Shown here: positions 1 through 25,938 of the stretch, one piece after another | Layout: each line of letters starts with the position of its first letter | Numbering within the stretch: position 1 is the stretch's first letter | IMG/VR virus record: IMGVR_UViG_3300024348_000214 | Span: 1-25,938 of that record | Reading direction: 5' to 3' (one strand) | Length of the DNA: 25,938 bases | Source of the DNA: a virus | Notes under the pieces: model-generated | Seen by the model: only the letters and a program-made list of their open reading frames with translations | Database searches by the model: none | What the model was told of the DNA's origin: nothing | Made by a program: the position numbers and the translations under genes

Positions 1-1190
1 CTCTTGAACAGATTGTAAAATCAGAAATTTCACAAGAATTAGTTGCAAAAATTGTCCTTGACACCATCAAACAAGTAAAAGACGCACCATTTGAAGGAAC
101 CATGTTCGTTCAAGAGAAAGCGTTAAAGTTCTGTAAACAACAAGAACTTCAAAAGGCAATGGACAAAGCCCAAAAAATCATTACAGAAGGTGACTTCGAA
201 TCTTACGACAAAGTTGAAGGATTGGTTCGTGAAGCTCTTCAGGTTGGGGAAAGAGATACAGGTACAACTGATATCTTCTCCAATCTTGACACCGTTCTTG
301 ATGAGGACTTTCGTCATCCAATTGCGATGGGAATACCAGGTATTGACAGACTACTTAAAGGTGGTTTGGCAAAAGGAGAAATTGGTGTTATCTTAGCACC
401 TACAGGTGTTGGTAAAACTACCATCCTTACAAAAATTGCGAACACTGCGTTCAATCTTGGATATAATGTTCTTCAAATCTTCTTTGAAGACAACCCAAAG
501 ATTGTACAACGTAAACACTTCACACTTTGGACTGGTATTGAACCTGACAACTTGGTAAAACACAAAGATGAGGTCATGGCTAAAATCACAGAAATCAAAG
601 AAACGATGAAGAACGAGTTAATCTTGAAAAAACTTCCATCGGATTCTATGTCCATGAATCAAATCAAAAACCAAATCAGAAAAATGATTGCTGATGGTAC
701 AAAGATTGACTTGGTTCTTTTAGACTATATTGATTGTGTGGTTCCTGAAAGTTCGAGTAAAGATGAATGGAAAGCTGAGGGTTCAGTAATGAGAGGTTTT
801 GAGGCGATGTGTCACGAACTATCATTAGTTGGATGGACTGCAACACAGGGTAACAGAAGCTCTATATCTTCTGAGGTTGTTACCACCGACCAGATGGGTG
901 GTTCTATTAAGAAAGCACAAGTTGGACACGTTATCATTTCCGTGGCTAAGACTTTACAACAAAAAGAAATGAACTTGGCAACCATCGCTATCACCAAATC
1001 ACGTATTGGTAAAGATGGGGTTGTATTTGAAAACTGTAAGTTTAACAACGAATTATTGGAAATAGATACTGATTCGTCTGTAACATTCTTAGGTTTAGAA
1101 GAACAAAAAGAAGAAAGAAAAAGAGATAGAGTTAAGGAATTGCTCGAAAAGAAAAAACAAAGAGAGCAACAACAACAACAACAATCGTAA
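1..1190 (+). CDS. Replicative DNA helicase, DnaB/T4 gp41-like (5' end outside window)
   Basis: This is probably the hexameric helicase that unwinds the phage replication fork and works with a primase. The reading frame is open from position 3, so the ATG at 102 is internal and the gene starts upstream; about 33 residues precede that Met. Numbering from that Met, a RecA-fold core follows an alpha-helical linker. Walker A (APTGVGKTT) is at about 99-107, a Walker B-like strand ending LLDYID at about 206-211, and a TATQGNRSS motif resembles the DnaB sensor segment. A late IGKDG...F segment matches the DnaB C-terminal strand. T4 gp41 has about 475 residues; roughly 395 are visible here, so the N-terminal domain is mostly missing. 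The C-terminus is very charged and ends in a seven-Gln run. nrdB starts 18 bases downstream. UvsX or another RecA-like ATPase is less likely because of the DnaB-type motif spacing. Confidence 0.88.
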   Translation, partial: LEQIVKSEISQELVAKIVLDTIKQVKDAPFEGTMFVQEKALKFCKQQELQKAMDKAQKIITEGDFESYDKVEGLVREALQVGERDTGTTDIFSNLDTVLDEDFRHPIAMGIPGIDRLLKGGLAKGEIGVILAPTGVGKTTILTKIANTAFNLGYNVLQIFFEDNPKIVQRKHFTLWTGIEPDNLVKHKDEVMAKITEIKETMKNELILKKLPSDSMSMNQIKNQIRKMIADGTKIDLVLLDYIDCVVPESSSKDEWKAEGSVMRGFEAMCHELSLVGWTATQGNRSSISSEVVTTDQMGGSIKKAQVGHVIISVAKTLQQKEMNLATIAITKSRIGKDGVVFENCKFNNELLEIDTDSSVTFLGLEEQKEERKRDRVKELLEKKKQREQQQQQQS

Positions 1191-1208
1191 AAAATACAAT
1201 TTAAAATT

Positions 1209-2156
1209 ATGGAAAAAATATTAATAGAGAACCCTAATAGGTTTGTTATCTTCCCAATTCAACACAACGACATTTGGGAGTATTACAAAATGCACCAAGC
1301 GGCTTTTTGGACGGCAGAAGAAATTGACTTGACAAACGACATCAGAGATTGGAATAATCTCTCTGAGAATGAACAATATTTTATTAAGAATATTCTATCA
1401 TTCTTTGCGGCATCTGATGGTATTGTCAATGAAAACTTGGCTGAAAACTTTTATCGTGAAGTACAATACCCTGAAGCGAAGTTCTTCTATGGTATGCAAT
1501 TGGCGATGGAGAACATCCACAGTTTGATGTATTCACTTCTTATCGACACTTACATCTCAAGTGAAGAAGAAAAGAATTTATGTTTCACAGCATTGGACAA
1601 CTTACCTGCAGTTCAAAAGAAAGCTAAATGGGCTTTGGATTGGATTGAAAAGGCGTCGTTTCAAGAAAGATTGGTTGCGTTTGCGGCGGTTGAAGGTATC
1701 TTCTTCTCAGGTTCATTCTGTTCAATCTTTTGGTTGAAATCAAGAGGTATCATGCAAGGTTTGTGTAATGCAAATTCTCTTATCTTTAAAGATGAGAACT
1801 TACACTGTGACTTCGCAATTCACCTTTTAAATAATCACGTTGAAAACAAACCAAGTGAAAAAAGAATCAGAGAGATTTTATTATCGGCTTTGGAAATCGA
1901 AAAAGAATTCATCACTGAGTCATTACCTGTATCTTTAATTGGTATGAACTCAAACTTAATGAAACAATATCTTGAGTTTGTTGTTGATGGATTGTTGGTT
2001 AAATTTGGTTGTAAAAAAGAATTCAATGTTGAACAACCATTCAAATTTATGGAACAAATTGCGGTTGAGACTAAAGGTAACTTCTTTGAGTCAAGAACAG
2101 TTGAGTATCAAAAAGCTAAATTAAATGAAACAATTTCCTTCGAGGAAGATTTCTAA
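1209..2156 (+). CDS. nrdB: Class Ia ribonucleotide reductase, beta (R2) subunit
   Basis: This is the small subunit of aerobic ribonucleotide reductase. It houses the di-iron centre and the tyrosyl radical that is passed to the alpha subunit for reduction of ribonucleoside diphosphates. All expected ligands are visible: D70 (AASDG), E101 and H104 (AMENIH), E162 (AVEGIFF), and E196 and H199 (DENLHCDF). The radical Tyr is Y108. The C-terminal tail ends SFEEDF, the acidic-aromatic tail that docks into the alpha subunit. At 315 residues it is near normal for the short forms of the family. Over its whole length it resembles eukaryotic-type R2 (for example [13 protein letters not shown]) more than the E. 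coli NrdB type. The start has no Shine-Dalgarno sequence. nrdA follows after 11 bases, so the two are surely co-transcribed. Confidence 0.96.
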
Positions 2157-2167
2157 TCTAAAACAAT

Positions 2168-4594
2168 ATGATGTCATTAAAAATTAAAAAAAGAAATGGT
2201 GAGGACGTATCATTCAATCCTCAAAAAATCTATAATCGAGTTAAACGTGCAGCTAAAGGATTGAACGTAAACTCTGATGAAATATTCATCAAGGTTATTA
2301 CGTCAGTGCCAACTGAAGGACTTATCACAACTAAAGAGTTAGATAAGTTGGTTTATGAAATCGCTGCGGCATACACTGGTAGTCACCACGACTATTCAAG
2401 ACTTGCATCTTCAGTTGCAATTTCTTCTTACCACAAAGAGACCAATGATAGTTTCTGTGAGACTATTATGGAATTACACTCTACAGGTGTAATCAATGAT
2501 AAGTTAATTGAAATCATGAATGAGTACGGTCACGATAAAATCGACGCGGTAATCAACCACGAGAACGATTACAACTTTGATTACTTCGCTTGGCGTTCAT
2601 TACAAGAAATGTACTTGTTGAAGACACCTCAAGGTAAAGTAATTGAAAGACCACAACACATGTATATGAGAGTTGCATTGTGGGTCACAAAATCATTTGA
2701 ACAAGCGGTTGAGTATTACCACTCATTGTCTAACCAACTTATTTCACCAGCAACACCAATCATTATCAACTCAGGAACCAAAGTTCCTCAGTTAGCGTCT
2801 TGTGTGTTACACTACAACAATGCGGATTCACGTAATGGTTTGTTACATACCTTGAATGATATTTCAACATATTCTTCAGACGCGGCAGGTATTGGTTTAT
2901 CAATGTCTAACATCAGAAGTAAAGAAAGTCGTATCAATTCATCAGGTGGATTTGCGGGTGGATTGTTGAAGTATTTGAAAATCGTTAATGAGTCATTGAG
3001 ATTCTTTAATCAACAAGGAAGACGACCTGGTAGTGCGGCTATCTACATCGAACCATGGCATAAAGATGTTATGGACCTATTGGATATTAAAAAGAACACA
3101 GGTGCTGAAGAATTGAGAGCGAGAGATTTGTTTACGGCTCTTTGGATTCCTGATAATTTCATGAAAGCGGTTAAAGAAAGTTCTGATTGGTATTTGTTCT
3201 GTCCTAATGATATTATCAAGGCGGGTATTAAACCACTTCAAGAATGTTATGGGGATGAATACGAAGCAAACTACAATAAAGCGGTTTATTTAGGTCTTGG
3301 TAAAAAAGTTAAGGCTCAAGATGTTTGGACTAAGATTATCGAATCACAAGTTGAAACTGGTGTTCCTTACTTATGTTCTAAAGACAATGCGAACAAGAAA
3401 ACAAATCACCAAAACATCGGAGTGATTAAACAATCAAACCTTTGTAATGAGATTTACCAATACACCGATGAGGAGACTACGGCAATCTGTACATTATCTT
3501 CAATGGTATTGAAAAATTTTATTAATAAAGGTGAGTTTAATTTCGACTTACTTTATAATGAGGTAAAAAAAGTTGTTAGAGCACTTAACAAAGTTATCGA
3601 CATCAACAGTTACTCGACTGAAAAAGGTAGAAAAGGTGGATTAGACCAAAGAGCAATTGCAATCGGTACTCAAGGATTAGCTGACGTATTTTATTTGATG
3701 GATTACATCTTCACATCAGAAGAAGCTAAGAAATTAAACAAGATGATTTTCGAAACAATCTACTTCGCAGCTATTACTGAAAGTATGGAGTTATGTAAGT
3801 CAGGTGAATACAAACCTTACGCTCACTTTGAAGGTTCACCAATGTCAAAAGGAGAATTCCAATTTGATATGTGGGGATTAGATTATGAAGGATTAGGTGG
3901 TTTATGGGATTGGGACAGTCTTAAGTTAGAAGTATCTAACCATGGAGTATGTAACTCATTATTCACGGCTCAGATGCCTGTTGCATCTTCAGCTAAGATT
4001 ACAGGTTCATATGAAATGACAGAACCAGCTCACTCGGCAATCTTTAACAGACGAGTTGTTGGTGGTGAAATCATGATTGTAAACAAGTACCTAATTAACG
4101 ACTTTGAGAAAATGGGTATTTGGTGTGAAGACTTGAAAAATGAAATCATCCTAAACGAAGGGTCAGTCCAAAACATTAACTTCAACAATTATTTGGATAC
4201 TGAAGACAAAAACTACACTAAGAAAGTTAAACGTATTGAACACTTGATTAGTAAGTACAAAACAATTTGGGAGATTTCACAGAGAGAATTGATTAACATG
4301 GCGGCAGATAGGGCACCATTTATCGACCAATCACAATCAATGAATATCTACATGGCTAACCCAACATTGTCTAAGATTACTTCATCACATTTTCACTCAT
4401 GGGAAAAAGGATTGAAGACTTTATGTTACTATGTTAGAACTAAGGCAATTTCAACAGGGGCTAAACACTTGGCGGTTGACGTATCAAAAATACAACAACC
4501 TAAAGTTAAAGTTGAAACTCCAAAAGTTGAAATAACTGAATTAACAACAAAACCTGAAGATAGTCCTTTTGAATGTTTTGGATGTAGTTCCTAA
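2168..4594 (+). CDS. nrdA: Class Ia ribonucleotide reductase, alpha (R1) subunit
   Basis: This is the catalytic subunit of ribonucleotide reductase and partner of the upstream nrdB product. The N-terminus (about residues 3-90) is an ATP-cone, so dATP feedback on overall activity is likely retained. Active-site residues are visible: C212 in LASCVL, then N424, C426 and E428 in SNLCNEI, and C441 in AICTLS. The radical-transfer tyrosine pair is Y754-Y755 in TLCYYVRT. The C-terminal swinging-arm cysteine pair is C803 and C806 (ECFGC), used for re-reduction by thioredoxin or glutaredoxin. At 808 residues the length is normal for a eukaryotic-type R1. The start may be either of two adjacent ATGs (2168 or 2171). 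A terminator follows directly. No intron, intein or frameshift is seen, although phage nrdA genes often carry such insertions. Confidence 0.97.
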   Translation: MMSLKIKKRNGEDVSFNPQKIYNRVKRAAKGLNVNSDEIFIKVITSVPTEGLITTKELDKLVYEIAAAYTGSHHDYSRLASSVAISSYHKETNDSFCETIMELHSTGVINDKLIEIMNEYGHDKIDAVINHENDYNFDYFAWRSLQEMYLLKTPQGKVIERPQHMYMRVALWVTKSFEQAVEYYHSLSNQLISPATPIIINSGTKVPQLASCVLHYNNADSRNGLLHTLNDISTYSSDAAGIGLSMSNIRSKESRINSSGGFAGGLLKYLKIVNESLRFFNQQGRRPGSAAIYIEPWHKDVMDLLDIKKNTGAEELRARDLFTALWIPDNFMKAVKESSDWYLFCPNDIIKAGIKPLQECYGDEYEANYNKAVYLGLGKKVKAQDVWTKIIESQVETGVPYLCSKDNANKKTNHQNIGVIKQSNLCNEIYQYTDEETTAICTLSSMVLKNFINKGEFNFDLLYNEVKKVVRALNKVIDINSYSTEKGRKGGLDQRAIAIGTQGLADVFYLMDYIFTSEEAKKLNKMIFETIYFAAITESMELCKSGEYKPYAHFEGSPMSKGEFQFDMWGLDYEGLGGLWDWDSLKLEVSNHGVCNSLFTAQMPVASSAKITGSYEMTEPAHSAIFNRRVVGGEIMIVNKYLINDFEKMGIWCEDLKNEIILNEGSVQNINFNNYLDTEDKNYTKKVKRIEHLISKYKTIWEISQRELINMAADRAPFIDQSQSMNIYMANPTLSKITSSHFHSWEKGLKTLCYYVRTKAISTGAKHLAVDVSKIQQPKVKVETPKVEITELTTKPEDSPFECFGCSS

Positions 4595-4597
4595 TTT

Positions 4598-4625: not shown

Positions 4626-4661
4626 ATTTTTAATCTATTTAAAGAAAAATAGATAGCATTA

Positions 4662-4672: not shown

Positions 4673-5143
4673 ATGGCAGATGGAATTACTTATGGTATAA
4701 ATTTTCCCTTTAGGGATTCTAGACGTGGTGATTATTTAGAACTTACAGAATTAGAGTCTCAGGAAATTAAAGCCGACTTGATACATTTATTATTAACAAG
4801 AAAAGGTTCAAGATATTACTTACCTCAATTTGGTACGAGATTATATGAATTTCTTTTCGAACCATTTGATGGTTTGACGTTCAATGCTATCGAATCTGAC
4901 ATTAGAGATGCGATTGAGACATTTATGCCAAACTTATTGGTTAATAGTTTGAGTATCACACCTGCGGATGCTCAAGAGGAAGTTGATATTGCAACAGGAC
5001 AAAATATTTTAGGTTCAAGTGAATCATCAATTTACAGATTTCCTGGTAAAGGTACGTCTGAATATACTGCAAAAATAAGATTAGATTACTCAACCAACGG
5101 GTCAACATACGGACAGAGTGATTTTGTAATTATCAATATTTAA
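4673..5143 (+). CDS. Baseplate wedge protein, gp25-like
   Basis: This is a small structural protein of the contractile-tail baseplate. In T4 and related contractile machines gp25 sits in the inner baseplate at the start of the sheath and binds the gp6/gp7 wedge core. The family signature is visible at about residues 31-65: a helix EIKADLIHLLLTRKGSRYY followed by a P-x-FG-x-x-L-x-x-x-LFEP segment. The product has 156 residues, somewhat longer than T4 gp25 (about 132), with the extra length in an Asp/Glu-rich insertion around 100-130. The gp6-like gene follows after five bases; gp25 next to a J/gp6-type protein is the usual order in contractile tails. Despite the family's lysozyme-like name, no catalytic activity is implied. 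Confidence 0.9.
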   Translation: MADGITYGINFPFRDSRRGDYLELTELESQEIKADLIHLLLTRKGSRYYLPQFGTRLYEFLFEPFDGLTFNAIESDIRDAIETFMPNLLVNSLSITPADAQEEVDIATGQNILGSSESSIYRFPGKGTSEYTAKIRLDYSTNGSTYGQSDFVIINI

Positions 5144-5148: not shown

Positions 5149-6987
5149 ATGGCAAATAATAGAATATCGTACGCAACTAGAGATTATCAGTCAATCAGGA
5201 CTGAACTCTTAAATTACACTAGAACATATTATCCTGACTTAATTCAGGATTTTAATGATGCTTCGATATTTTCTGTGTTTATTGATTTAAATGCTGCTAT
5301 CGCAGACAACTTACACTATAACATTGACCGAAGTGTTCAAGAAACGGTATTACAGTATGCACAACAAAGGTCGTCTATATATAACATTGCAAGAACTTAT
5401 GGATTAAAGTTACCAGGTCAAAGACCTTCAGTTTCTTTAGTAGATTTTTCAGTTACAGTCCCTGCGTTTGGTGATAAAGAAGATGAAAGATATCTTGGTA
5501 CATTACTAAGAGGTTCTCAAGTTGTTGGGGCTGGCGTAGTTTTTGAAAATGTTTATGATATTGATTTTGCTTCACCATATAATGCTCAAGGTTTCCCAAA
5601 TAGATTAAAAATTCCTAATTTTAATTCAAATGGGATATTGGTTAACTATACAATTACAAAAAGAGAAATTGTTGTTAATGGTATTACCAAAGTTTTTAAA
5701 AGAGTTATCAGTGCCAATGATGTTAAACCTTTCTTTGAATTGTTCTTGCCTGAAAAAAATGTGTTGGGTATTACAAGTGTATTATTAAAGAACGGAACTC
5801 AATACACAAACATACCAACCACAGCAGAATTTTTAGGCGCTGAAAATAGATGGTACGAGGTGGATGCATTGGCTGAGGACAGAGTGTTTATTGAAGACCC
5901 TACCAAAGTTTCAGACCAACCTGGTATTAAAGTAGGTAGATATATTCAAACACAAAATAGATTCATTACTGAATATACTCCTGAAGGATTTAAGAAAATG
6001 ACTTTTGGTGGTGGTACCAATACTGCTCAAGACCAATTGAATCAGTTCACAACTTTAGGTACAACATTAGAGTTACAGAAGTATTCAAATAACTTCTCAT
6101 TAGGTTCAACACTAACACCTAACTCAACATTGTTCATTCAATATAGAGTTGGTGGTGGTTTAGCAACAAACTTGGGGACTAACGTAATCAATCAGATTGG
6201 TACAGTATCTTTCTTTGTTAATGGTCCTTCAGAAACTACAAACTCTGCGGTAATCAACTCGTTAAGATGTGTTAACGTAACTGCCGCTGTAGGTGGGGCA
6301 GGACTTCCATCATTAGAGGAAATTAGAAATTATGTATCCTTTAACTTCGCAGCTCAGAAAAGAGCGGTAACGGTACAAGATTATGAATCAATTATTAGAA
6401 ACATGCCAGCTCAGTTTGGTGCACCTGCGAAGGTATCCATTACTGAAAACGACAACAAGATTTTAATTCAAATACTATCTTATGATACATCAGGTAAATT
6501 GACAAATATTGTGTCAAACACTTTAAGACAGAATATTGCAAATTACTTATCAAATTACCGTATGATGAATGATTATATATCAATTTTTAGTGCTGAAGTT
6601 ATTGACCTTAGTGTTGATGTTTCGATTGTTTTAGATTCGGCACAAAATTCGGGTCAAGTTATTTCAAGTGTTATTGATAAGGTATCTGCTTATTTCAATC
6701 CACAAACAAGACAGTTAGGTCAAAACGTATATCTATCGGAGATTAGAAGTATTATTCAAAATACAAATGGTGTATTGACTGTTGCAAGTTTGGATGTGTT
6801 CAATGAAGTTGGAGGACAGTACTCGTCAGCTGAAACATCTATGGAGTATTCTGACCCTGCACTTAAATTAATTGGCCCAGTTGATGACACAATCTTCGCT
6901 CAACCATCTCAGGTTTATCAAATTAGATACCCTGGTAAAGACATCCGAGTTTCAGTTAAGAACTTCCAATCAATTACTTTCTCTTAA
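5149..6987 (+). CDS. Baseplate wedge protein, gp6-like (baseplate J family)
   Basis: This core wedge protein in T4 forms the dimeric ring that holds the baseplate together and rearranges on sheath contraction. The N-terminus (TRDYQSIRTELLNYTR at about 9-25, then PDLIQDFNDAS) is the characteristic gp6 start. A conserved C-terminal segment (SLEEIRNYVSF, then KRAVTVQDYESI, at about 386-417) matches the baseplate_J-type region. At 612 residues it is close to T4 gp6 (about 660). The start ATG at 5149 lies five bases after the gp25 stop and lacks a Shine-Dalgarno sequence. Together with the gp25-like gene it is the strongest evidence that the virion has a contractile tail. Confidence 0.9.
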   Translation: MANNRISYATRDYQSIRTELLNYTRTYYPDLIQDFNDASIFSVFIDLNAAIADNLHYNIDRSVQETVLQYAQQRSSIYNIARTYGLKLPGQRPSVSLVDFSVTVPAFGDKEDERYLGTLLRGSQVVGAGVVFENVYDIDFASPYNAQGFPNRLKIPNFNSNGILVNYTITKREIVVNGITKVFKRVISANDVKPFFELFLPEKNVLGITSVLLKNGTQYTNIPTTAEFLGAENRWYEVDALAEDRVFIEDPTKVSDQPGIKVGRYIQTQNRFITEYTPEGFKKMTFGGGTNTAQDQLNQFTTLGTTLELQKYSNNFSLGSTLTPNSTLFIQYRVGGGLATNLGTNVINQIGTVSFFVNGPSETTNSAVINSLRCVNVTAAVGGAGLPSLEEIRNYVSFNFAAQKRAVTVQDYESIIRNMPAQFGAPAKVSITENDNKILIQILSYDTSGKLTNIVSNTLRQNIANYLSNYRMMNDYISIFSAEVIDLSVDVSIVLDSAQNSGQVISSVIDKVSAYFNPQTRQLGQNVYLSEIRSIIQNTNGVLTVASLDVFNEVGGQYSSAETSMEYSDPALKLIGPVDDTIFAQPSQVYQIRYPGKDIRVSVKNFQSITFS

Positions 6988-15714: not shown

Positions 15715-15725
15715 ACTATTTATAA
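15713..15725 (+). promoter_or_regulatory. AAACTATTTATAA element upstream of the 302-aa gene
   Basis: AAACTATTTATAA begins within the last codons of the upstream gene and ends 11 bases before ATG 15737. It is the closest match to the element at 7054. It fills most of the only gap inside the structural chain, which makes a regulatory role more likely than chance. Confidence 0.4.
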
Positions 15726-15736
15726 GATAAAAAGAT

Positions 15737-16645: not shown

Positions 16646-19629
16646 TGGCGGTAAATACCAAAAATACTAAATTCTTTTACCCACCAAGACCTGGTAATGG
16701 TGCGGGTACCTTCTCTGACAACATTGTAGGATTACAAACTGTTGAGGGAGGAGGTCTTACGCAGGGTAATTTTGAATTTACAACTGGTGTAACAGAAAAA
16801 GTTAATAGAACATTTAATGTTGGGGCGTTCTCTGAACCTATGACGTTAGATGCTATGAACATCGATAGTCTTGAGGAAAGTAGAAGGATATTAGCAACCC
16901 AATTTAGAGTTTACCCTAACTTCGATATCACTCAAGTTTTAAACTTTTCAATGTATGGTTCCCTATCCGAAAGATTTAGGGTGTCAATTACAAAAATCAT
17001 TAATTATTTTCCTGCGTCTTTAGATATTCAGTTTAGTAATAGTCAGTATTTGACTGGTAATACCGCATATGACATCACATACGATGTTCAAAACGACGAG
17101 ACATATTTTAAAGTCAGTCTTAATAGGATTAAGAATCCATTTGACATTGATTATTCTGTTAGTGCGACAACCAATTTATCAATACGAGAATTAGTTACAT
17201 CGAAATATAGAAATTTAAGTGAAACTTATTTGGATTATTGTATCAGTATTAATGATAACATTTACAAAGTATTAGCCTTTGTACCATCCGAAACATTATC
17301 TTCAGGTGAACTCACATTTTATGTGTCAGGTGCTCCATTTGGTACAACAGCAACAACAATTAACGAAGAATATCAAATCAGACCTAATGACTATATAGTT
17401 GATAAAGTATTTCAAGAAGATTTTGATGAGGTTGAAAAATTCTTGGTTAATAGATTAGTTAGACCTGAATACACTGCGGTATTCCAAGTACCCGCACAAA
17501 ATGAGTATGGTCAAACATATACCGACTATCAACAAGTCACATGGCCAAAAGACGGTCCATGGAATTTAGATATTAGTTCCTTCTTGTTTGATTCTTATTT
17601 GGAACAAATTCAAGCAATTGCAGTCAATTTAGATTCATTTAAAACAAATCTTATTTCAAGATTTTTAGTTTCAGACTCATTAAAAGAATTTGATACTTTA
17701 GGTAGAAAGGTTGAAAAGATATTTCAAATTTATGGTAGAAGTTTTGACCAAATAAAACAATTTATTGAAGGATTAGCTTACATGAATTCTGTAAACTATA
17801 ATCCGTCAAACGATATACCATCACAGTTGTTAGTTAATTTATCTCAAACTTTGGGATGGTCATCTAACTTCTCGCCAATTACAAACGAAGATTTCTTATC
17901 ATCTGTTTTTGGTAACACATCAACACCTACGTACCCTGGTTATGCTCGAGCTTTAACACCCACAGAATTAAACTATGCTTATTATAGAAACTTAATTCTT
18001 AATGCTTCATATCTCTTCAAATCAAAAGGTACAAGAAGGTCGGTTGAGTTTTTATTAAGATTAATTGGTGCACCCGATTCGTTAATTGAATACAACGAAC
18101 ACATTTATTTGGCTGACCAAAAAATTAACTTAGACCAATTCTATACTCAATGGGCTCAAATTTCAGGTGGAACTTATGTTCAAGAAACACCGACATATGC
18201 TGTAGGTCAAACTTATAGTATTCACGGTCAAATATTTACAGCCTTTACAACAAATGCCACATACCAAGACGTTAATATCACGTTGGAGGATTACCCAATA
18301 GATTTTGAGGGTTATCCAAACGCACCTGTTAATACTGAAAATTACTTTTTCCAAATTGGTGCTGGTTGGTATGAACAAACACCACAACATAGAAGTCCTG
18401 ATGAGGTTGCGATTACAGGAAATGTTTTTACAGGTCAAAACTTTAACATTCAAACACAATTACAACCATTCACTTATGGTCAACCATATTTGAATCGATT
18501 TAGAGACTTCCCATATATGACTGAAGGGTTTAAACTTCAAAAGGTTGTGGATAACAACAAGTCATGGTTATCGGATGATGACAAAGTTAGGGTATCAACT
18601 CAAGGTGATTATAATGCTTATTACTTTGTTGATAATGAGAAGTTAGTGTTGAATGTTAAAAACGTTGATATCTTCTTAAACCCTGGTCAAGGTCTTGTTT
18701 ATGATGTGTGGGACCAATCAAGAAAATATGATTACCCGATTCCTGAATCAGGTTTAACTGTTGGATACCCTGTACCAGGTGGTGTGGATTGGACTTATGT
18801 TGACCCCAAGCCTAAGAAAAAAACATTCTTTGAATTCTCCCAAACTTTTTGGCAGAATATGATTAACACTCGAAACAGACAATACATCTCTGATGGTAAG
18901 ACGGGTGGTTATCCTACACTACAATCTATTTGGTGGAAATACATTGAATCGGAACAAACTGTCGGATTACCTAACAACAAGTACACTTATCAAAAGTTAA
19001 TTGATTACGTGAATGGTATTGGTCCTTATTGGACTAAGTTAGTGGAACAGATGGTTCCTGCTACAACTATTTGGAATGGTGGTGTTAGATTAGAAAACTC
19101 TGTTTTACATAAACAAAAGTTTGTTTATAGAAGACAAAGAGGATGCCAATTTATACCTGTACCTGTTGACCCATGTTTTATCATTTCAAGTATTTTTGAT
19201 TATACATGTAGTACTGAATACGTAGATTTTAATATATACCCATGGTTAAATGGTGACATTGTGGTTTCAAACTTTGAAAGCATTTTGGCAAACAGAATCA
19301 ACAATATGTTATCATCAAGCGGATTGACATTAAATCAGTGTGACCAAAATTCAGTTCAAACTGAATGGTTTGTTGACTTACGAATTGCTGGTGATATATT
19401 GATACAAGAAACATTCTACAGTGGGTACGGATACAATGATGTACCAACAAATTCTGAATGGAGAAATGCTTTGATAAATTACCTACCAATATTATATAAT
19501 TACGGATACACTTACTTCTTAAATGGTAATGAATTAACAATAACTAATTTAAATTGTTTAACTCAAAATTTACAAGAGACTGTAATTTTAAATGTTGGTA
19601 TAAATATTAATATAGATTGTAGTATATAA
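16645..19629 (+). CDS. Large tail/baseplate protein (994 aa)
   Basis: A large virion protein joined by TAATG overlaps to genes on both sides. At about residues 452-488 there is a helix-rich segment (YLFKSKGTRRSVEFLLRLIG, then APDSLIEY). It resembles the conserved YLxKSKGTxxSIxxLLRxxGxP motif that I associate with phage tail and baseplate proteins; this family match is from memory and moderate. The N-terminal ~450 residues are beta- and Tyr-rich. The part after about 830 contains several Cys and ends in a compact domain (about 870-994) that may be related to the C-terminal domain of the next protein. Probably a baseplate periphery or fibre-hub protein. No enzymatic motif or membrane segment is seen. 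Confidence 0.7.
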   Translation: MAVNTKNTKFFYPPRPGNGAGTFSDNIVGLQTVEGGGLTQGNFEFTTGVTEKVNRTFNVGAFSEPMTLDAMNIDSLEESRRILATQFRVYPNFDITQVLNFSMYGSLSERFRVSITKIINYFPASLDIQFSNSQYLTGNTAYDITYDVQNDETYFKVSLNRIKNPFDIDYSVSATTNLSIRELVTSKYRNLSETYLDYCISINDNIYKVLAFVPSETLSSGELTFYVSGAPFGTTATTINEEYQIRPNDYIVDKVFQEDFDEVEKFLVNRLVRPEYTAVFQVPAQNEYGQTYTDYQQVTWPKDGPWNLDISSFLFDSYLEQIQAIAVNLDSFKTNLISRFLVSDSLKEFDTLGRKVEKIFQIYGRSFDQIKQFIEGLAYMNSVNYNPSNDIPSQLLVNLSQTLGWSSNFSPITNEDFLSSVFGNTSTPTYPGYARALTPTELNYAYYRNLILNASYLFKSKGTRRSVEFLLRLIGAPDSLIEYNEHIYLADQKINLDQFYTQWAQISGGTYVQETPTYAVGQTYSIHGQIFTAFTTNATYQDVNITLEDYPIDFEGYPNAPVNTENYFFQIGAGWYEQTPQHRSPDEVAITGNVFTGQNFNIQTQLQPFTYGQPYLNRFRDFPYMTEGFKLQKVVDNNKSWLSDDDKVRVSTQGDYNAYYFVDNEKLVLNVKNVDIFLNPGQGLVYDVWDQSRKYDYPIPESGLTVGYPVPGGVDWTYVDPKPKKKTFFEFSQTFWQNMINTRNRQYISDGKTGGYPTLQSIWWKYIESEQTVGLPNNKYTYQKLIDYVNGIGPYWTKLVEQMVPATTIWNGGVRLENSVLHKQKFVYRRQRGCQFIPVPVDPCFIISSIFDYTCSTEYVDFNIYPWLNGDIVVSNFESILANRINNMLSSSGLTLNQCDQNSVQTEWFVDLRIAGDILIQETFYSGYGYNDVPTNSEWRNALINYLPILYNYGYTYFLNGNELTITNLNCLTQNLQETVILNVGININIDCSI

Positions 19630-21764
19630 TGTCAGTTTTTAACTATAACATATCGGTAACGGGGGACTGTTCAAACACTAATTCAGGTTCAATCAGTTTA
19701 TCATTAACTGGTGGTACTCCTCCATATACTGTTGAATGGTTGAGTCCTGTTTTATCTCCTGATATTGTAACTACATTACCTGCGGTTAAGACAGGATTAA
19801 GTGCCACAACATATGCGGTTAGGGTTAATGATAGTACCCTACCAATAAACTCTGAATTTTATATTAATATCCCAGTATCAAGTGGGGTGTGTGGTAGTAT
19901 TGTATCTGTTTTAGATACGACATGTGGATTTAATAACGGTTCTGTGACAGGAACCTCAACATCTGATTATTCATCGACCAATTTTTATTTATACCACGGT
20001 GATGGTGTATTTTCACAATCTGCGGTTACCAACCAACAAACTGTTGTATTTGGTAGTTTAACTGCGGGAACATATTATATGACGGTTGAAGATTTGGGTG
20101 GATGTACTGCACAAACTTCTAACTTTATTGTTGAAAATTCTCCATCATTAAACTATGGATTATATGCCGTACCAAACTCTTCTTGTGGTGGAAGTCCTAT
20201 GGGTAAAATCATGATTACAGGATTGACTGGTCATCCACCTTTTAGTTATTCTTGGAGTACAAGTGCGACGGGGTCGACTGTAACAGGTTTAACCGCTGGA
20301 ATTTATTCTGTTGATGTTACTGATGGTTATGGATGTGTTAAAACTGAAACTGCAACCATATCTAATGTTCCTCCTATTGGTTTTGGTACGTTTACTGCGA
20401 CGCAACCGACTTGTTTTTCAAATGATGGTACATTAACAATTCAAATTACAGGTGGAACCGCACCTTATTATTATTCTGCATCGACAGGAGACGTTGTTGT
20501 TCAATATGCAACAAGTTGGACATTGTCAGGGTTATCACCAGGTAATTACAGTATAAGTGTTACTGACGCAGGTTTATGTGCGTTTACTCAAGGAACCGTA
20601 TTAACTTCACCAAATGGAATAACTTCTGTAAGTATAAACACTCAAGGTTCGACATGTTCAAGTAATGGAGGTTCTATTAGTATTGCGGTTAATGGTGGAA
20701 CTACTCCATACGTTTACTCGTTAATATACCCTAATGGTAATACTTTAAATGTTGCGAATTCACAGACAAACCAATTGTTTTCCAATTTATATTCAGGAAC
20801 TTATACTGTTTCAGTTACTGATGCTTCAGGATGTTTCTATATGGATGAGGTTACATTACTTACCACAGACACATTCACAATTTCAACCCAAACAACAGGT
20901 ACAACTTGTAATCAAGATAACGGATATATTACTGTTACTAAAACAAGTGGTGGAGAACCTCCATTTGATTATTCTTTGGATGGTTTGGTGAATGTGTTAG
21001 ATACTTCACAATCGGCAGTAACATTTAATAATGTATCTTCAGGTCAACATACAATAACAGTTACTGATAATACAGGTTGTACTCAGACATTACAAGTTTA
21101 TGTTGATGAAAGCCCTTCGTTAAATTATAGTTTATATAACACATCTTGTGGTAATGGTTCAAACGGTTCAATAACAGCATTCATTTCTTCAGGTGAACCT
21201 CCATTTACATATGTTTGGTCACCTAATGTACCAAACAACCCACAACAAATCCAAGTAAGTGGTCTTACTGCTGGTACATACAATGTTACCATTATAGATA
21301 GTAATGGATGTTCATTACAAAGATTTGCAAATATCGCTTGTGATGCGAATTATGTGTCTTATCAGACATATGTGATGGGGTCAGAAGTATTTAATATCCA
21401 ATCACAAACAAAATATGGTTTGTTACAAATGTTAAATGATGGATTTGATGATTTAACATCAGGTAATACAAGTTGTAGTTTAATTTCTGCGACATATACT
21501 GTAAAAGTTTCTGTTAATCCATTAGGTTTAACTACAAGTGATACTTTCTTTACAACGACTTCATTAGTTGTTGCACCAACAGATAATCAATATTACGATA
21601 CGGTAGTTAGTTTGTTACAAACAATACCTGGCATTGGAAATATTAGTGTGGACTCAGGTAATAATCAAATTACAATTGAAACTAGTCCAAATAATAATAG
21701 TTTGGATGGTCAAGAAATCATCGTTGAGTTAATAATCGTTTATGATACAATTTGTTTGACATGA
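19629..21764 (+). CDS. Fibre/adhesin-like protein with seven SprB-type repeats (711 aa)
   Basis: About seven Ig-like repeats of 70-80 residues fill residues 5-570, roughly 5-82, 88-168, 178-245, 254-325, 336-411, 418-492 and 499-570. The best copies follow the SprB pattern: Cys near the start, a TGGxPPYxYxW-like strand, a GLTAGTYxVxVTD strand and a closing GC. Examples are HPPFSYSWSTSATGSTVTG and SGLTAGTYNVTIIDSNGC. SprB repeats are known from gliding-motility and other surface adhesins of Bacteroidota, so this phage protein probably forms an extended host-binding or mimicry stalk. The last ~140 residues form a distinct domain. Most repeats carry two Cys, which could pair after lysis. The gene starts in a TAATG overlap and its stop overlaps the next start. 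Confidence 0.82.
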   Translation: MSVFNYNISVTGDCSNTNSGSISLSLTGGTPPYTVEWLSPVLSPDIVTTLPAVKTGLSATTYAVRVNDSTLPINSEFYINIPVSSGVCGSIVSVLDTTCGFNNGSVTGTSTSDYSSTNFYLYHGDGVFSQSAVTNQQTVVFGSLTAGTYYMTVEDLGGCTAQTSNFIVENSPSLNYGLYAVPNSSCGGSPMGKIMITGLTGHPPFSYSWSTSATGSTVTGLTAGIYSVDVTDGYGCVKTETATISNVPPIGFGTFTATQPTCFSNDGTLTIQITGGTAPYYYSASTGDVVVQYATSWTLSGLSPGNYSISVTDAGLCAFTQGTVLTSPNGITSVSINTQGSTCSSNGGSISIAVNGGTTPYVYSLIYPNGNTLNVANSQTNQLFSNLYSGTYTVSVTDASGCFYMDEVTLLTTDTFTISTQTTGTTCNQDNGYITVTKTSGGEPPFDYSLDGLVNVLDTSQSAVTFNNVSSGQHTITVTDNTGCTQTLQVYVDESPSLNYSLYNTSCGNGSNGSITAFISSGEPPFTYVWSPNVPNNPQQIQVSGLTAGTYNVTIIDSNGCSLQRFANIACDANYVSYQTYVMGSEVFNIQSQTKYGLLQMLNDGFDDLTSGNTSCSLISATYTVKVSVNPLGLTTSDTFFTTTSLVVAPTDNQYYDTVVSLLQTIPGIGNISVDSGNNQITIETSPNNNSLDGQEIIVELIIVYDTICLT

Positions 21765-22087
21765 CACAAGTAAGAATAACCGAAATATCAGGAGGAACTT
21801 ATCCTATTGACGTATATATTTCAGATGTGTATGGTAATAATCAAACTTTGCTTGGTACGATTAATACTGGACCTGTTCCACCTATCATTGAATACAATAC
21901 GGTAATACCATCTATATTTAACACTGCGCCTGAAATAATGTTGACCTTAACGGACAACAATGGTTGTAGTATTTTCAAATTATTACAATGTACTTTTGGA
22001 TGTACTTTCCAAATTACAATAGAATTGGCGTCTTGTGTTGTTAATATCGACATTCAAGAAGCGAATTGTCTTTTCACTCTTCAGTAA
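21761..22087 (+). CDS. Small unassigned structural protein (108 aa)
   Basis: I choose ATG 21761, which forms an ATGA overlap with the upstream stop. A TTG three codons earlier (21752) is possible but less likely. The product is short, beta-rich and Cys-rich: five Cys occur in the last 45 residues or so, including LQCTFGCTF. A LTDNNGC segment echoes the closing strand of the SprB repeats in the upstream protein, so it may be a single divergent Ig-like module or a cap for that fibre. It has no signal peptide or membrane segment. The function is unknown. Confidence 0.6.
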   Translation: MTQVRITEISGGTYPIDVYISDVYGNNQTLLGTINTGPVPPIIEYNTVIPSIFNTAPEIMLTLTDNNGCSIFKLLQCTFGCTFQITIELASCVVNIDIQEANCLFTLQ

Positions 22088-22099
22088 AGTTTCCAATAT

Positions 22100-22120
22100 T
22101 TTTAATTCGTTGAATTGAAA
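22100..22120 (+). other. AT-rich hairpin in the 70-base gap after the small gene
   Basis: TTTTAATTC (22100-22108) can pair with GAATTGAAA (22112-22120) around a three-base loop, giving nine pairs with one G-T. No T-run follows, so it is not a convincing terminator. It may be a weak terminator or an mRNA-processing site. Confidence 0.25.
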
Positions 22121-22134
22121 TAGTATTGTTGTGG

Positions 22135-22143
22135 TATTTATTA
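22135..22143 (+). promoter_or_regulatory. TATTTATTA element upstream of the Pro/Thr-linker fibre gene
   Basis: TATTTATTA ends 14 bases before ATG 22158, in the gap after the long overlapping chain. It has the same core and about the same spacing as the elements at 7054 and 15713, which supports a shared role in starting expression. Confidence 0.35.
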
Positions 22144-22157
22144 AATAAAAACATCGA

Positions 22158-23588
22158 ATGTCCACATACTCTATATTAGTTACAAACGAAGCCCCTGGAT
22201 GCGGTACAGAAATCGAACAACAACTGACGATTACTGGCTGTACTAGTTATATTGTTAGATTAGCTTCAAATTCAAATGCTTTAGGTCCATTTAATGTTTA
22301 TGTTGACGGTATTATTTACTACTCTGCACAAACAAGAAATGAAATGTTTAATGGGGTTGTAATCAATCTTGAATGTGTTACGCCTTCTCCAACTGTTACA
22401 CCGACTATTACACCAACTCCTACTCAAACTGACCCAATGACGGGTACAACTACAACGCCAACTCCAACACCTACTAACACTCCAACTAACACTGCCACAC
22501 CAACATTTACACCTACCAATACTATAACTCCTACTAATACTGAAACACAAACCCCAACTCCAACACAAACCCCAACTAATACTGAAACCCAAACGCCAAC
22601 TCCTACACCAACAAATACTCAAACACCAACTAATACTCAGACACAAACACCAACTAACACTGCAAGTAATACGGCAACTCCAACCAATACTCCTACTCAA
22701 ACTCAAACACCTACAACAACTACGACTTTAACTACTACACCAACTCAAACACCAACTAATACTGCAACACCAACTAATACAATTACACCTACTAAGACTC
22801 AAACTCCAACTCCAACCAATACACCAACTAATACTACAACTCAAACACAAACACCAACTAATACTGAGACACCAACTAATACCGCTACTAACACATCAAC
22901 TCCAACTCCTACAAATACAGAGACTCCAACTAATACACCAACATTAACACAAACACCAACACCGACTAACTTACCATTCTCAGCTTATTTATTCCCTGAA
23001 CCAAGTGATTTTAATTCAACTAATAATCTTGGTCAATATATGTCAGATAATGGTGCTAGTTCATTCTATGGTTATTGGCTTAATGGTCAGGTTGCTCCTG
23101 CCTCAGGACCAAATTACTCTCCTGATTTGGACGTTTATGCTCATTTCTCAGGTTGGTCAACTACTGTTGATGGATTCCTAACACCTGTTACAACTTTAGC
23201 TGGTCCAATAAGACAAGTTTCTGGTTCAGGTACTGATTCTTATGGTTGTGGACAAAATCAATACACGTTTGGTACTATTGCGGTCGCTCCTGGACAAGTA
23301 GACCCTAGTATTCAATACTTCTATTCAATTTGGATACCATTGGCGGGTGTTGGAGGTACAATGACAAATATGACGGTAGATATTGGTACTGGTAGTGCGT
23401 GTGCGACTAATATTATTAATGATGGAGTACCTGACCCAAGTTTATCAACACAAAACGTTACTGTAACTTCAGGGGCAGCTATTCCTGCGGGAACTTATAG
23501 AGTATTATGGTTAGGTTCGTATGCTGAACAACCAGTAGCACCTCCATTGTCTGTTACAATTTATTTTAAGGGGGACACTAAAACATAA
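22158..23588 (+). CDS. Fibre protein with a long Pro/Thr-rich linker (476 aa)
   Basis: Three parts are visible. Residues 1-74 form a small globular domain with several Cys. Residues 75-271 are a low-complexity tract made almost only of Thr, Pro, Asn and Gln with a few Glu, in runs such as TPTNTPTNT and TQTPTPT. This should be an extended, flexible, mucin-like stalk. Residues 272-476 form a beta-rich globular C-terminal domain with aromatic strands ([21 protein letters not shown]), plausibly the tip that meets a receptor or glycan. The C-terminal fold is not recognised. The gene stands alone, with gaps of 70 bases before and 36 after, and has the TATTTATTA element upstream. Role as a tail fibre or virion decoration is inferred from composition and position. 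Confidence 0.72.
22380..22970 (+). repeat. Thr-Pro low-complexity coding repeat
   Basis: The stretch encodes about 197 residues dominated by TPT, TNT and TQT tripeptides. Codons for Thr (ACA, ACT, ACC, ACG) and Pro vary from copy to copy, so there is no exact long DNA repeat. This suggests the composition is kept at the protein level rather than by recent duplication. Confidence 0.9.
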
Positions 23589-23624
23589 TATAAACACACA
23601 TTTTTAATATAAAAAAAAAACAAC

Positions 23625-25938
23625 ATGTCATTTCCATATAAAAATCCTATAACCGCAAGTCAACTTTCAGGTTCTGAATCCGTAACAAGGGCAGCAACAT
23701 TTGGTACTAATTTTTCTGTACTTCAAACAGGTGGTTATATGGAGGTATATTCACTTTCAGATTTAAATTGGTCAACATACGGTGTAACATCAGGTGCAAT
23801 TCAAAATTCTGGTAATACAATACCAATTCAATTTACAAAAGGAACTGGAACCTCATTTTCACGTGATGTGTTAACATTAAATTCTGATAATATATCTTCA
23901 GGTAGAAGGAGATTGGGTATGCAAGTATTTGTTCAGGAAACTGAAACTGTATATCAATATACCATACCAAATTATGAAACATTATGGAATGCTTTGACAG
24001 GATTAACAGGTAACTCTGGAATTACTGTTACTGAATATGCAACATCGGTTAATGACCGTTCACAAGCTGGTAGAGATTTCATTAACGCTTGGACTGGTTC
24101 AACAATTGAAGGTCAAAGTGGTACAACAAGAGAAGATGCTCGTTGGAGAATATTCTATGGTACTGACGTTCAAATCACAGGTGGAACATATTTTTCAGGA
24201 ACACAAGAATTAGATTTATATAATAATACAGGTGGTACTGTAACAATTACAGGATTTACAGGTACAATTACGGGAGGTACTTATGATAGTAATACAGGTA
24301 CTCTTAGATTGGACAGTAGTGCGGAATCTCCTATCTATATTACAGGATTCACATCAGGTGGTGGAGGTAGTCCTCTAACGATTTATGATGCTACTTCAGG
24401 AGTAACGGCGACAAACGTTACAGGTATGACATTTTCAGGTGCTTCTGTTATTGATAACGGAGATGGTAATGTTGTAATTAATTTTACTGGTGGAACAGGA
24501 ACATCAGGGACTAGTGGTACTTCAGGTATTAGTGGTATTGATGGTTCATCAGGAACTAGTGGTTCTTCAGGGACTAGCGGTAGTTCAGGGACTGACGGAA
24601 CTAGTGGTTCTTCAGGAACTGACGGAACTAGCGGTAGCTCAGGAACATCAGGTAGTTCAGGAACTGATGGAACAAGTGGTTCATCAGGAACTTCAGGTTC
24701 AAGCGGTACATCAGGTAGTTCAGGAACTGACGGTACATCAGGTTCAAGCGGAAGCTCAGGAACAGATGGTACATCAGGTTCATCTGGAACTAGTGGTAGT
24801 TCAGGGACAGATGGGACATCAGGTTCAAGTGGTACTTCAGGTATTAGTGGTATAGATGGTTCATCTGGGACTAGTGGTAGTTCAGGAACTGACGGTACTA
24901 GCGGTTCTTCAGGTACAGATGGTACCTCAGGTAGTTCAGGAACTTCAGGTTCAAGTGGTACATCAGGTTCATCTGGAACTAGTGGTAGTTCAGGAACTGA
25001 CGGAACAAGTGGTTCATCTGGAACTAGTGGTAGTTCAGGAACTGACGGAACAAGTGGCTCATCAGGGACTAGCGGTAGTTCAGGAACAGATGGTACATCA
25101 GGTAGTTCGGGAACTGACGGAACAAGTGGCTCATCAGGGACTAGCGGTTCTTCAGGAACGGATGGTACATCAGGTAGTTCAGGAACAAGTGGTACTTCAG
25201 GTATTAGTGGTATAGATGGTTCTTCAGGAACTAGCGGTAGTTCAGGAACTAGCGGAAGCTCAGGCACATCAGGTTCTTCGGGAACTGACGGAACAAGTGG
25301 TTCTTCAGGAACTAGCGGAAGTTCAGGTACAGATGGTACGTCAGGTTCTTCAGGAACTAGCGGAAGCTCAGGAACGGATGGTACATCAGGTTCTTCAGGA
25401 ACTAGCGGAAGTTCAGGTTCTTCAGGTACAGATGGTACATCAGGTTCTTCAGGAACTAGCGGAAGTTCAGGTACAGATGGTACGTCAGGTTCTTCAGGAA
25501 CTAGCGGTAGCTCAGGAACGGATGGTACATCAGGTTCTTCAGGAACTAGCGGTAGCTCAGGAACGGATGGTACATCAGGTTCTTCAGGAACTAGCGGAAG
25601 CTCAGGAACGGATGGTACATCAGGTTCTTCAGGAACATCTGGCTCAAGTGGTTCATCAGGAACTAGTGGTAGCTCAGGAACGGATGGTACATCAGGTTCA
25701 TCAGGAACATCTGGCTCAAGTGGTTCATCAGGAACTTCAGGTTCTAGCGGAAGTTCAGGTTCTTCAGGGACAGATGGTACATCAGGTTCTTCAGGAACTA
25801 GCGGAAGTTCAGGAACCGACGGAACAAGTGGTTCTTCAGGAACTAGCGGAAGTTCAGGAACTGACGGAACAAGTGGTTCTTCAGGAACTAGCGGAAGTTC
25901 AGGAACTGACGGAACAAGTGGTTCTTCAGGAACTGACG
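23625..25938 (+). CDS. Collagen-like tail fibre protein (3' end outside window)
   Basis: The frame opens at ATG 23625 and stays open to the last base, giving at least 771 codons. Residues 1 to about 290 form a globular, Gly/Thr-rich N-terminal region (start MSFPYKNPITASQLSG) with no recognised family, probably the virion attachment domain. From about residue 292 (position 24498) everything is Gly-X-Y, about 160 triplets, almost all GTS, GSS, GTD or GID/GIS. Such tracts form collagen-like triple helices and are common in phage fibres, where they act as long trimeric rods. There is no Pro in the tract. The receptor-binding tip and stop codon lie beyond the window. Upstream is a 36-base gap with a poly-A run and no Shine-Dalgarno sequence; it lacks the TATTTATWA element. 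Confidence 0.88.
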   Translation, partial: MSFPYKNPITASQLSGSESVTRAATFGTNFSVLQTGGYMEVYSLSDLNWSTYGVTSGAIQNSGNTIPIQFTKGTGTSFSRDVLTLNSDNISSGRRRLGMQVFVQETETVYQYTIPNYETLWNALTGLTGNSGITVTEYATSVNDRSQAGRDFINAWTGSTIEGQSGTTREDARWRIFYGTDVQITGGTYFSGTQELDLYNNTGGTVTITGFTGTITGGTYDSNTGTLRLDSSAESPIYITGFTSGGGGSPLTIYDATSGVTATNVTGMTFSGASVIDNGDGNVVINFTGGTGTSGTSGTSGISGIDGSSGTSGSSGTSGSSGTDGTSGSSGTDGTSGSSGTSGSSGTDGTSGSSGTSGSSGTSGSSGTDGTSGSSGSSGTDGTSGSSGTSGSSGTDGTSGSSGTSGISGIDGSSGTSGSSGTDGTSGSSGTDGTSGSSGTSGSSGTSGSSGTSGSSGTDGTSGSSGTSGSSGTDGTSGSSGTSGSSGTDGTSGSSGTDGTSGSSGTSGSSGTDGTSGSSGTSGTSGISGIDGSSGTSGSSGTSGSSGTSGSSGTDGTSGSSGTSGSSGTDGTSGSSGTSGSSGTDGTSGSSGTSGSSGSSGTDGTSGSSGTSGSSGTDGTSGSSGTSGSSGTDGTSGSSGTSGSSGTDGTSGSSGTSGSSGTDGTSGSSGTSGSSGSSGTSGSSGTDGTSGSSGTSGSSGSSGTSGSSGSSGSSGTDGTSGSSGTSGSSGTDGTSGSSGTSGSSGTDGTSGSSGTSGSSGTDGTSGSSGTD
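24498..25938 (+). repeat. Gly-X-Y coding tandem repeat with a 45-base unit
   Basis: The basic period is nine bases (one triplet). A higher-order 45-base unit (15 residues, GSSGTSGSSGTDGTS) is clear toward the 3' end, for example four near-identical copies at 25443-25622 and three plus a partial at 25785-25938. A marker block encoding GTSGISGID starts at 24516, 24831 and 25191, spaced by 7 and 8 units of 45 bases. Confidence 0.93.

What the first reader, a model, noticed from the sequence alone, without database searches (positions are those of the whole stretch)
1..25938. GATC is completely absent from the window
Reading through every line, I found no GATC in about 26 kb. At this base composition several tens would be expected (my rough estimate is 70-80). 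Other palindromes of the same composition (GTAC, CATG, AGCT, CTAG) are common. Synonymous choice supports active avoidance: in every Asp-Pro, Asp-Gln, Asp-Arg and Asp-Leu pair I inspected (for example near 3074, 5325, 5896, 6604, 8276, 9911, 12221, 17745, 18112, 24052), Asp is GAC, although GAT is frequent before other codons. The likely cause is long exposure to a host GATC-cutting (Sau3AI/MboI/DpnII type) restriction system.
Basis: partly seen in the sequence, partly recalled or inferred. Interest (0 to 1): 0.8.

Follow-up and report, generated by a model that had tools for sequence, protein, structure and literature searches.

The report
Large phages purged of GATC sites
This piece of a large bacterial virus lacks the four-letter word GATC, as do most of the relatives examined, probably because bacteria they infect cut DNA at that word; this is a known kind of escape from bacterial defence, seen here on an unusually large scale.

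Summary
The window holds 0 GATC against 74 (Markov) or 81 (synonymous shuffles, minimum 57 of 1000) expected; all 42 Asp codons before C are GAC.

The window is a fragment of a tailed phage. Of 73 non-redundant close IMG/VR loci, 68 have no GATC; nine large records (104-322 kb, chosen by size and state) hold 1 against about 4,934 expected. GATC-bearing relatives exist, some in the same metagenomes; the gp6 tree needs at least four changes.

Best explanation: host GATC restriction (DpnII/Sau3AI type), as in staphylococcal phage K. Host support is thin: of three genomes with distant GATC-free contigs, one has a DpnII operon, one a partial MutH-family match that may be MutH, one neither; three with GATC-bearing contigs have neither. 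Three GATC nuclease families were not found in 23 phage records. The host is unknown, such genes are uncommon in Bacteroidota, and DpnI-type enzymes are not excluded. A known kind of adaptation, extreme in scale.

The parts
1..25938 (.). Whole window: GATC absent on both strands (palindrome)
   Evidence: 0 observed, 74.2 expected; 0 vs 80.7 +/- 6.4 in synonymous shuffles
1..25938 (.). Whole window: CCGG absent as well
   Evidence: 0 observed, 19.6 expected; 0 vs 14.5 in synonymous shuffles; below 0.08 of expectation in 38 of 78 rows of the gp6 tree, 13 changes on it
3..1190 (+). DnaB-like replicative helicase (5' end open)
   Evidence: phrog_19 E 4.3e-50
1209..2156 (+). Ribonucleotide reductase small subunit
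   Evidence: phrog_86 E 1.2e-57
2168..4594 (+). Ribonucleotide reductase large subunit (NrdA); query for relatives
   Evidence: phrog_84 E 1.3e-170; 80 relatives kept
4673..5143 (+). gp25-like baseplate wedge subunit
   Evidence: phrog_261 E 1.8e-17; the gp25 name is recalled
5149..6987 (+). gp6-like baseplate wedge subunit; the gene used for the tree (the gp6 name is recalled)
   Evidence: phrog_219 E 1.7e-23; 80 relatives kept; tree of 78 rows
7080..23588 (+). Run of nine open frames downstream of the baseplate genes, function not assigned
   Evidence: open frames; 5 of these 9 were tested and have no PHROG match, the other 4 were not tested
23625..25937 (+). Long Ser-Gly-Thr repeat protein, perhaps tail-fibre-like (3' end open)
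   Evidence: translation; role inferred

Best explanation
The window comes from a lineage of large tailed phages under long, continuing selection against the restriction site GATC, imposed by GATC-cutting restriction-modification systems (DpnII, MboI or Sau3AI type) in at least some of the bacteria they infect. Shown: the word is absent, it is missing because codons and words were chosen to avoid it, the state covers large records and much of a broad clade, and it changes independently in some lineages, most simply by loss of the avoidance. Inferred: the agent is a host enzyme that cuts unmethylated GATC in incoming phage DNA, so a new GATC lowers phage survival and synonymous neighbours are kept. 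CCGG, CATG, TCGA, ACGT and GTAC are each missing in some relatives, which fits further restriction systems that change faster. The host is probably in the Bacteroidota (inferred).
For: Window counts and synonymous tests. Non-redundant loci of the NrdA/gp6 set with at least 10 expected: 68 of 73 with zero GATC, 41 observed against 3,130 expected in all 73. Nine large GATC-free records: 1 against about 4,934. In eight of them (frames of 150 aa or more) Asp before C is GAT 0, GAC 1,889; in five GATC-bearing relatives GAT 824, GAC 511. All twelve single-step neighbours of GATC are raised 1.09-1.34-fold, so no single mutational decay such as C to T. gp6 tree: at least 4 changes of GATC state, against 13 for CCGG; gp6 position 221 is GGTC in 70 of 70 avoiding rows and GATC in L117, L121, L127, two separate lineages; position 766 is GACC in 70 of 70 and GATC in L117. 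Nine metagenomes, picked by hand from the hit tables, hold both GATC-free and GATC-bearing relatives, which argues against a library artefact. Host side: bin G066, which holds GATC-free phage contig L468 (0/63), has a DpnII gene (E 2e-101) next to a Dam-family gene and a further methyltransferase-like frame; bin G062, which holds GATC-free contig L464 (0/55), has a MutH-family match (E 7e-11); the three genomes with GATC-bearing contigs (G061, G064, G065) have neither. No match to the DpnII, MutH/Sau3AI or DpnII-MboI families in 23 phage records. Precedent: phage K, 0/112 GATC in 50 kb, tied to Sau3A in PMC6532042 (passages read).
Against: The host is not identified. The host-side finds rest on two metagenome bins and on phage contigs whose sheath is only 33-39% identical to the query; the third genome with a GATC-free contig (G063, 0/10 in 4.1 kb) has neither gene. 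The match in G062 covers positions 1-69 of 103 in a 215-aa frame, which by length could be MutH rather than Sau3AI (lengths recalled). DpnII-family genes occur in 12 of 395 Bacteroidota genomes over the cut-off (3 strong) and MutH/Sau3AI-family genes in 6 of 395, sparse for so deep an avoidance. The phages carry two widespread methyltransferases whose specificities are unknown. Single GATC sites persist in some otherwise free loci (G042, L278, L351, L376-L379, and L003 three bases from its end). In GATC-bearing rows gp6 itself still shows Asp before C as GAC 23, GAT 1, and L134 and L149 have no GATC inside gp6, so the loss of avoidance there is partial or recent.
Confidence: 0.7

Rival explanations
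1. A methylation-dependent host enzyme of DpnI type cuts Gm6ATC. The phage avoids the site because its DNA would be methylated there, by the host or by the phage's own Dam-family methyltransferase.
For: Dam-family genes are fairly common in Bacteroidota (63 of 395 over the cut-off). DpnI-family genes occur in 8 of 395 over the cut-off, seven of them strong, against three strong DpnII matches. A Dam-family gene is in 5 of 38 phage records, including the three largest. PMC6286503 reports GATC below expectation in all 46 phages whose hosts carry the type IIM enzyme (passages read).
Against: The one phage Dam-like protein tested scores below the curated dam cut-off (59.9 vs 114.85 bits); the phage proteins lack the loop seen in the Dam-family protein of bin G066 and have the same loop in GATC-free and GATC-bearing phages (that this loop reads GATC is recalled). 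The Dam-like gene was not found in G004-G006, GATC-free records of 104-128 kb, though these are fragments.
Confidence: 0.12
2. The phages make their own nuclease that cuts GATC in host DNA (host genome breakdown), and have purged the word to spare themselves without a protecting methyltransferase.
For: Near-zero tolerance across large records of different sub-lineages would follow from a core phage enzyme. Many conserved phage genes have no assigned function.
Against: No DpnII, MutH/Sau3AI or DpnII-MboI family match in 23 phage records. One protein from each of the 17 clusters present in 5 or 6 of the 9 GATC-free records and none of the 6 GATC-bearing ones, and 3 of the 28 such clusters present in 4, gave no nuclease match in Pfam. 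Closely related phages carry GATC, and other palindromes come and go in the same way. Genes shared by both groups were not tested as nuclease candidates.
Confidence: 0.07
3. Counter-selection by the host's Dam/MutHLS mismatch repair, as proposed for enterobacterial phages.
For: phiX174 is devoid of GATC, and this is discussed in terms of MutH (PMC5014478, passages read). The 215-aa frame in bin G062 could be a MutH.
Against: MutH-family matches are in only 6 of 395 Bacteroidota genomes, and five of the six have frames of 463-514 aa, long like Sau3AI (that comparison recalled). Bin G066 holds a GATC-free phage contig and has no MutH-family match. CCGG, CATG and TCGA are purged in some relatives too, and these are not mismatch-repair signals (recalled).
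Confidence: 0.03
4. Artefact or compositional accident: sequencing, assembly or mutation bias.
For: None found.
Against: Synonymous and Markov controls; nine metagenomes hold both GATC-free and GATC-bearing relatives; all neighbour words are raised, not one.
Confidence: 0.01

Closest known systems
Staphylococcus phage K (Kayvirus) and Sau3A avoidance
   Same: Large tailed phage with no GATC: 0/112 in the first 50 kb, GGCC 0/13 as well. A review names elimination of GATC sites in its genome as avoidance of Sau3A (PMC6532042, passages read).
   Different: Unrelated host group; 148-kb record. Here purging covers records up to 322 kb and many sub-lineages, with lineages that carry GATC. In phage K the cognate host enzyme is named; here it is not known.
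Recognition-site avoidance in prokaryotic viruses (PMC6286503, passages read)
   Same: Loss of palindromic orthodox type II sites; complete or nearly complete elimination is reported there for about one tenth of viral genomes.
   Different: Uncultivated large phages, not tied to a known host; several palindromes lost in different sub-lineages of one clade, with turnover counted on a tree.
phiX174 without GATC (PMC5014478, passages read)
   Same: Complete absence of GATC.
   Different: 5.4-kb phage of E. coli, interpreted through methyl-directed mismatch repair.
Microcystis phage Mel-JY01 (PP395634.1)
   Same: A named relative (baseplate protein 26.7% identical over 99%) with 0 of 348 GATC in bases 1-185,359 of 190,001.
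   Different: Also lacks CTAG (0 of 152); recorded host is a cyanobacterium; no paper with the name in the held library.

Membership tests
Type II restriction-site avoidance | Palindromic site depleted beyond composition and codon or word usage | tested here: met
Type II restriction-site avoidance | Selection acts through synonymous or otherwise tolerated changes | tested here: met
   Asp GAT before C 0 of 42 in the window and 0 of 1,889 in eight large records; locked positions
Type II restriction-site avoidance | Related genomes not under the pressure carry the site | tested here: met
   G044-G049 at 0.53-0.88 of expectation; at least 4 changes on the gp6 tree. That these are free of the pressure is inferred
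Type II restriction-site avoidance | Host carries the cognate restriction enzyme | tested here: inconclusive
   DpnII operon in bin G066, partial MutH-family match in bin G062, nothing in G063; these hold distant GATC-free relatives; true host unknown
Type II restriction-site avoidance | No other protection of the site (modification by a phage methyltransferase) | tested here: inconclusive
   Two widespread phage methyltransferases, specificities unknown; DNA modification cannot be seen in these data
Type II restriction-site avoidance | Non-temperate life style, where full elimination is commonest | not tested
   No search for integrases was made; the link to life style is from PMC6286503 (passages)
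MutH-directed counter-selection of GATC | Host with a Dam/MutH system | tested here: inconclusive
   MutH family in 6 of 395 Bacteroidota, five of them long frames; host unknown
Phage-encoded GATC endonuclease | A nuclease gene of a known GATC family in the phage | tested here: not met
   0 of 23 records for PF04556, PF02976 and PF18742; many records are fragments and unknown families are not excluded

The most novel reading that the evidence does not exclude
GATC-free genomes in this clade reflect a phage-encoded, GATC-directed attack on host DNA by an unrecognised nuclease, the phages having purged the word instead of carrying a protecting methyltransferase; GATC-bearing lineages would be those that lost the enzyme or its specificity.
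Probability: 0.06. Interest if true: 0.75.

Novelty: new member of a known kind. Interest (0 to 1): 0.45.

Why it matters
If the reading is right, missing palindromes in uncultivated phages are a record of the restriction systems their hosts have used. This clade, with a stable GATC loss, a fast-changing CCGG loss and sister lineages that carry the sites, is a natural comparative system for how strong the pressure is, how quickly it is lost, and which bacteria the phages infect. The scale (about 4,900 expected sites missing in nine records) shows that even records over 300 kb can be kept free of one site.

Tried and rejected
Considered and rejected: composition or codon bias (Markov and synonymous controls); one-way mutational decay (all neighbour words raised); library artefact (both states in nine metagenomes); loss or protection explained by the phage Dam-like gene (same loop in both groups; Dam-like and SPPY-type methyltransferases occur with GATC-free and GATC-bearing contigs). 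Gene content of 9 GATC-free against 6 GATC-bearing records gave group-specific genes, but no nuclease among the 20 proteins tested in Pfam; 25 of the 45 clusters found in 4 or more GATC-free and no GATC-bearing record were not tested. The two genes found in all 6 GATC-bearing records and in no GATC-free one look like membrane or coiled-coil proteins (by eye) and by position seem to replace diverged counterparts (inferred). Host search: gp6 found no relative in genome contigs; a sheath alignment found six. Nine paper searches: none of the listed papers was on GATC loss in this clade; I saw listings and the passages cited, and subscription papers are mostly not held.

Weak points of my own analysis: the 148 non-redundant loci were chosen by a 41-mer overlap filter, after an attempt to group by contig name failed because names are not in the files (its counts of 312 loci are redundant and its metagenome test empty, so neither is used). 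The 121 GATC-free loci are selected for that state. The 15 large records were picked by size and known GATC state, not at random. The gp6 tree uses 77 of the 80 loci plus the window (L095, L118 and L120 left out; none has GATC); the Dam-like tree uses 63 of the 80 loci plus G001, near-copies left out by hand, and G001 sits on a long branch. Many records are fragments. On checking, I lowered the best explanation from 0.75 to 0.70 and raised the DpnI rival from 0.08 to 0.12, because strong DpnI-family matches (7 of 395) outnumber strong DpnII ones (3 of 395).
Full report
Observation. GATC occurs 0 times in 25,938 bases; 74.2 are expected under a maximal-order Markov model, 70.5 under a first-order one and 82.5 from base composition. 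In 15 genes, 1000 synonymous-codon shuffles give 80.7 +/- 6.4, minimum 57. Asp before C is GAT 0 and GAC 42, against 298 and 101 before other bases; Ile after G is never ATC (0 of 63). CCGG is also absent: 0 against 19.6 and 14.5 in shuffles. TCGA, TATA, GCGC and CGCG are also below the shuffles (z -4.2, -3.7, -4.1, -2.7), but none is near GATC (z -12.6).

What the window is. IMG/VR holds it as a 25,938-base linear record. It encodes a DnaB-like helicase, ribonucleotide reductase subunits and baseplate wedge proteins, hence a tailed phage, probably with a contractile tail (inferred). Named phages are distant: NrdA about 40% identical in Tenacibaculum and Cellulophaga phages, gp6 26.7-28.2% in Flavobacterium phages, an uncultured phage and Microcystis phage Mel-JY01.

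Breadth. Of 312 IMG/VR loci from four searches, 148 remained after removing overlaps. Among those with at least 10 GATC expected: in the NrdA/gp6 set 68 of 73 have zero and 5 do not (L134, L149, L137, L127, L117); in the set found through a Dam-family methyltransferase 22 of 44 have zero, 6 are between 0.05 and 0.6 of expectation and 16 above; in the set found through a second methyltransferase 30 of 31 have zero and one has a single GATC. For palindromes with 15 or more expected, elimination below 0.05 of expectation occurs for GATC (114 of 140), CATG (25 of 138), CCGG (6 of 70), ACGT (2 of 108) and GTAC (1 of 128), and for no locus with AATT, ATAT, TATA, TTAA, TGCA, AGCT, CTAG or TCGA; TCGA is at zero in some loci outside that filter, such as L129 0/12 and L224 0/16.

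Whole records. GATC observed/expected: G001 (322 kb) 0/901, G002 0/782, G003 0/622, G004 0/376, G005 0/286, G006 0/245, G039 0/883, G043 0/430, G042 1/409; GATC-bearing G044 538/1007, G045 522/596, G046 443/566, G047 369/431, G048 228/302, G049 212/259. These 15 were chosen by size and state. Mel-JY01 has 0/348 in 185 kb; the 42-kb stretches of a Flavobacterium phage and of an uncultured 484-kb phage are normal, 136/143 and 205/189.

How the word was lost. In eight GATC-free records Asp before C is GAT 0, GAC 1,889; in five GATC-bearing ones GAT 824, GAC 511. The share of Asp followed by a C-starting codon is 7.0% against 10.9%, so codon choice and the following codon both moved. The twelve neighbour words are raised 1.09-1.34-fold, which fits selection against the word and not decay of one base.

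Turnover. On a gp6 tree of 78 rows, the 8 GATC-bearing rows need at least 4 changes, CCGG loss 13 and TCGA loss 4. The GATC-bearing rows are nested among avoiding ones, so four losses of avoidance is the simplest reading; a mix of gains and losses is not excluded. Of six GATC-bearing rows looked at, L117, L121, L127 and L137 have GATC inside gp6 and L134 and L149 do not. Position 221 is GGTC in 70 of 70 avoiding rows and GATC in L117, L121 and L127; position 766 is GACC in 70 of 70 and GATC in L117; two further sites (956 in L117, 1727 in L137) lie where avoiding rows vary. In the GATC-bearing rows Asp before C in gp6 is still GAC 23, GAT 1, so recovery there is slight. On the Dam-like gene tree the GATC-free state needs 3 changes among 64 rows, so it is old and stable.

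Agent. No match to DpnII (PF04556), MutH/Sau3AI (PF02976) or DpnII-MboI (PF18742) families was found in 23 phage records. One protein of each of 17 clusters present in 5 or 6 of the 9 GATC-free records and in none of the 6 GATC-bearing ones, and 3 of the 28 such clusters present in 4, gave no nuclease match in Pfam. The phage Dam-like protein tested is below the dam cut-off; the phage proteins lack the loop of the Dam-family protein of bin G066, and their own loop is the same in GATC-free and GATC-bearing phages. That this loop sets GATC recognition is recalled.

Host side. A sheath alignment found six bacterial records: four Bacteroidota bins, a Prochlorococcus single cell and a Desulfofervidaceae bin. 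Their phage contigs have GATC L463 32/57, L464 0/55, L465 0/10, L466 8/16, L467 36/81, L468 0/63. The bin of L468 has a DpnII gene (E 2e-101) between a Dam-family gene and a frame that looks like a second adenine methyltransferase (by eye). The bin of L464 has a MutH-family match over positions 1-69 of 103 in a 215-aa frame (E 7e-11), which could be Sau3AI-like or MutH. The genome of L465 has neither, nor do the three with GATC-bearing contigs. Background in 395 Bacteroidota genomes over the cut-offs: DpnII family 12 (3 strong), MutH/Sau3AI 6, DpnI 8 (7 strong), dam 63. This is suggestive, with small numbers and the uncertainty of binning. PMC10333322 (passages) reports GATC as a methylated motif in at least one isolate of all five Bacteroides-group species analysed.

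Comparison with what is known. Complete or nearly complete loss of sites is reported for about a tenth of viral genomes (PMC6286503, passages). Staphylococcal phage K is the nearest in kind: 0/112 in 50 kb, attributed to Sau3A in PMC6532042 (passages). That review says type II systems are present in about 33% of strains and names Sau3A as the commonest type II system in S. aureus, so a patchy enzyme can go with zero sites.

Verdict. A real, strong and clade-wide restriction-site avoidance (the cause inferred); a known kind of adaptation, notable for record size, breadth, near-zero tolerance and visible turnover. The enzyme and the host remain to be shown.

Noticed in passing
window 1-25938; G003 and G002 records: CCAG and its complement CTGG, a non-palindromic word, are depleted: CCAG 19/61 in the window, 36/307 and CTGG 53/351 in G003, 76/381 and 115/460 in G002. 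Cause unknown.
   Followed up: no
G003 record; L191:164-1909: A GATC-free phage encodes a type IIG-like restriction-methyltransferase (PADLOC E 7.6e-118).
   Followed up: no
G003 record (whole): CATG is also completely absent (0/584), and CTTAAG is nearly absent (1/33).
   Followed up: partly
G047 record: AGWCT is depleted (7/83) in a GATC-bearing relative.
   Followed up: no
L216, L218-L220 (Mel-JY01): A phage recorded from Microcystis lacks both GATC (0/348) and CTAG (0/152) in 185 kb.
   Followed up: partly
L463: A contig of a Prochlorococcus single-cell genome encodes a sheath 45% identical to that of these phages.
   Followed up: no
window 23625-25937: Very long Ser-Gly-Thr repeat protein, open at the window end.
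   Followed up: no
L469:548-3194: Dam-family, DpnII and a further methyltransferase-like frame side by side in a Bacteroidales bin that also holds a 287-kb contig with a sheath homologue.
   Followed up: partly
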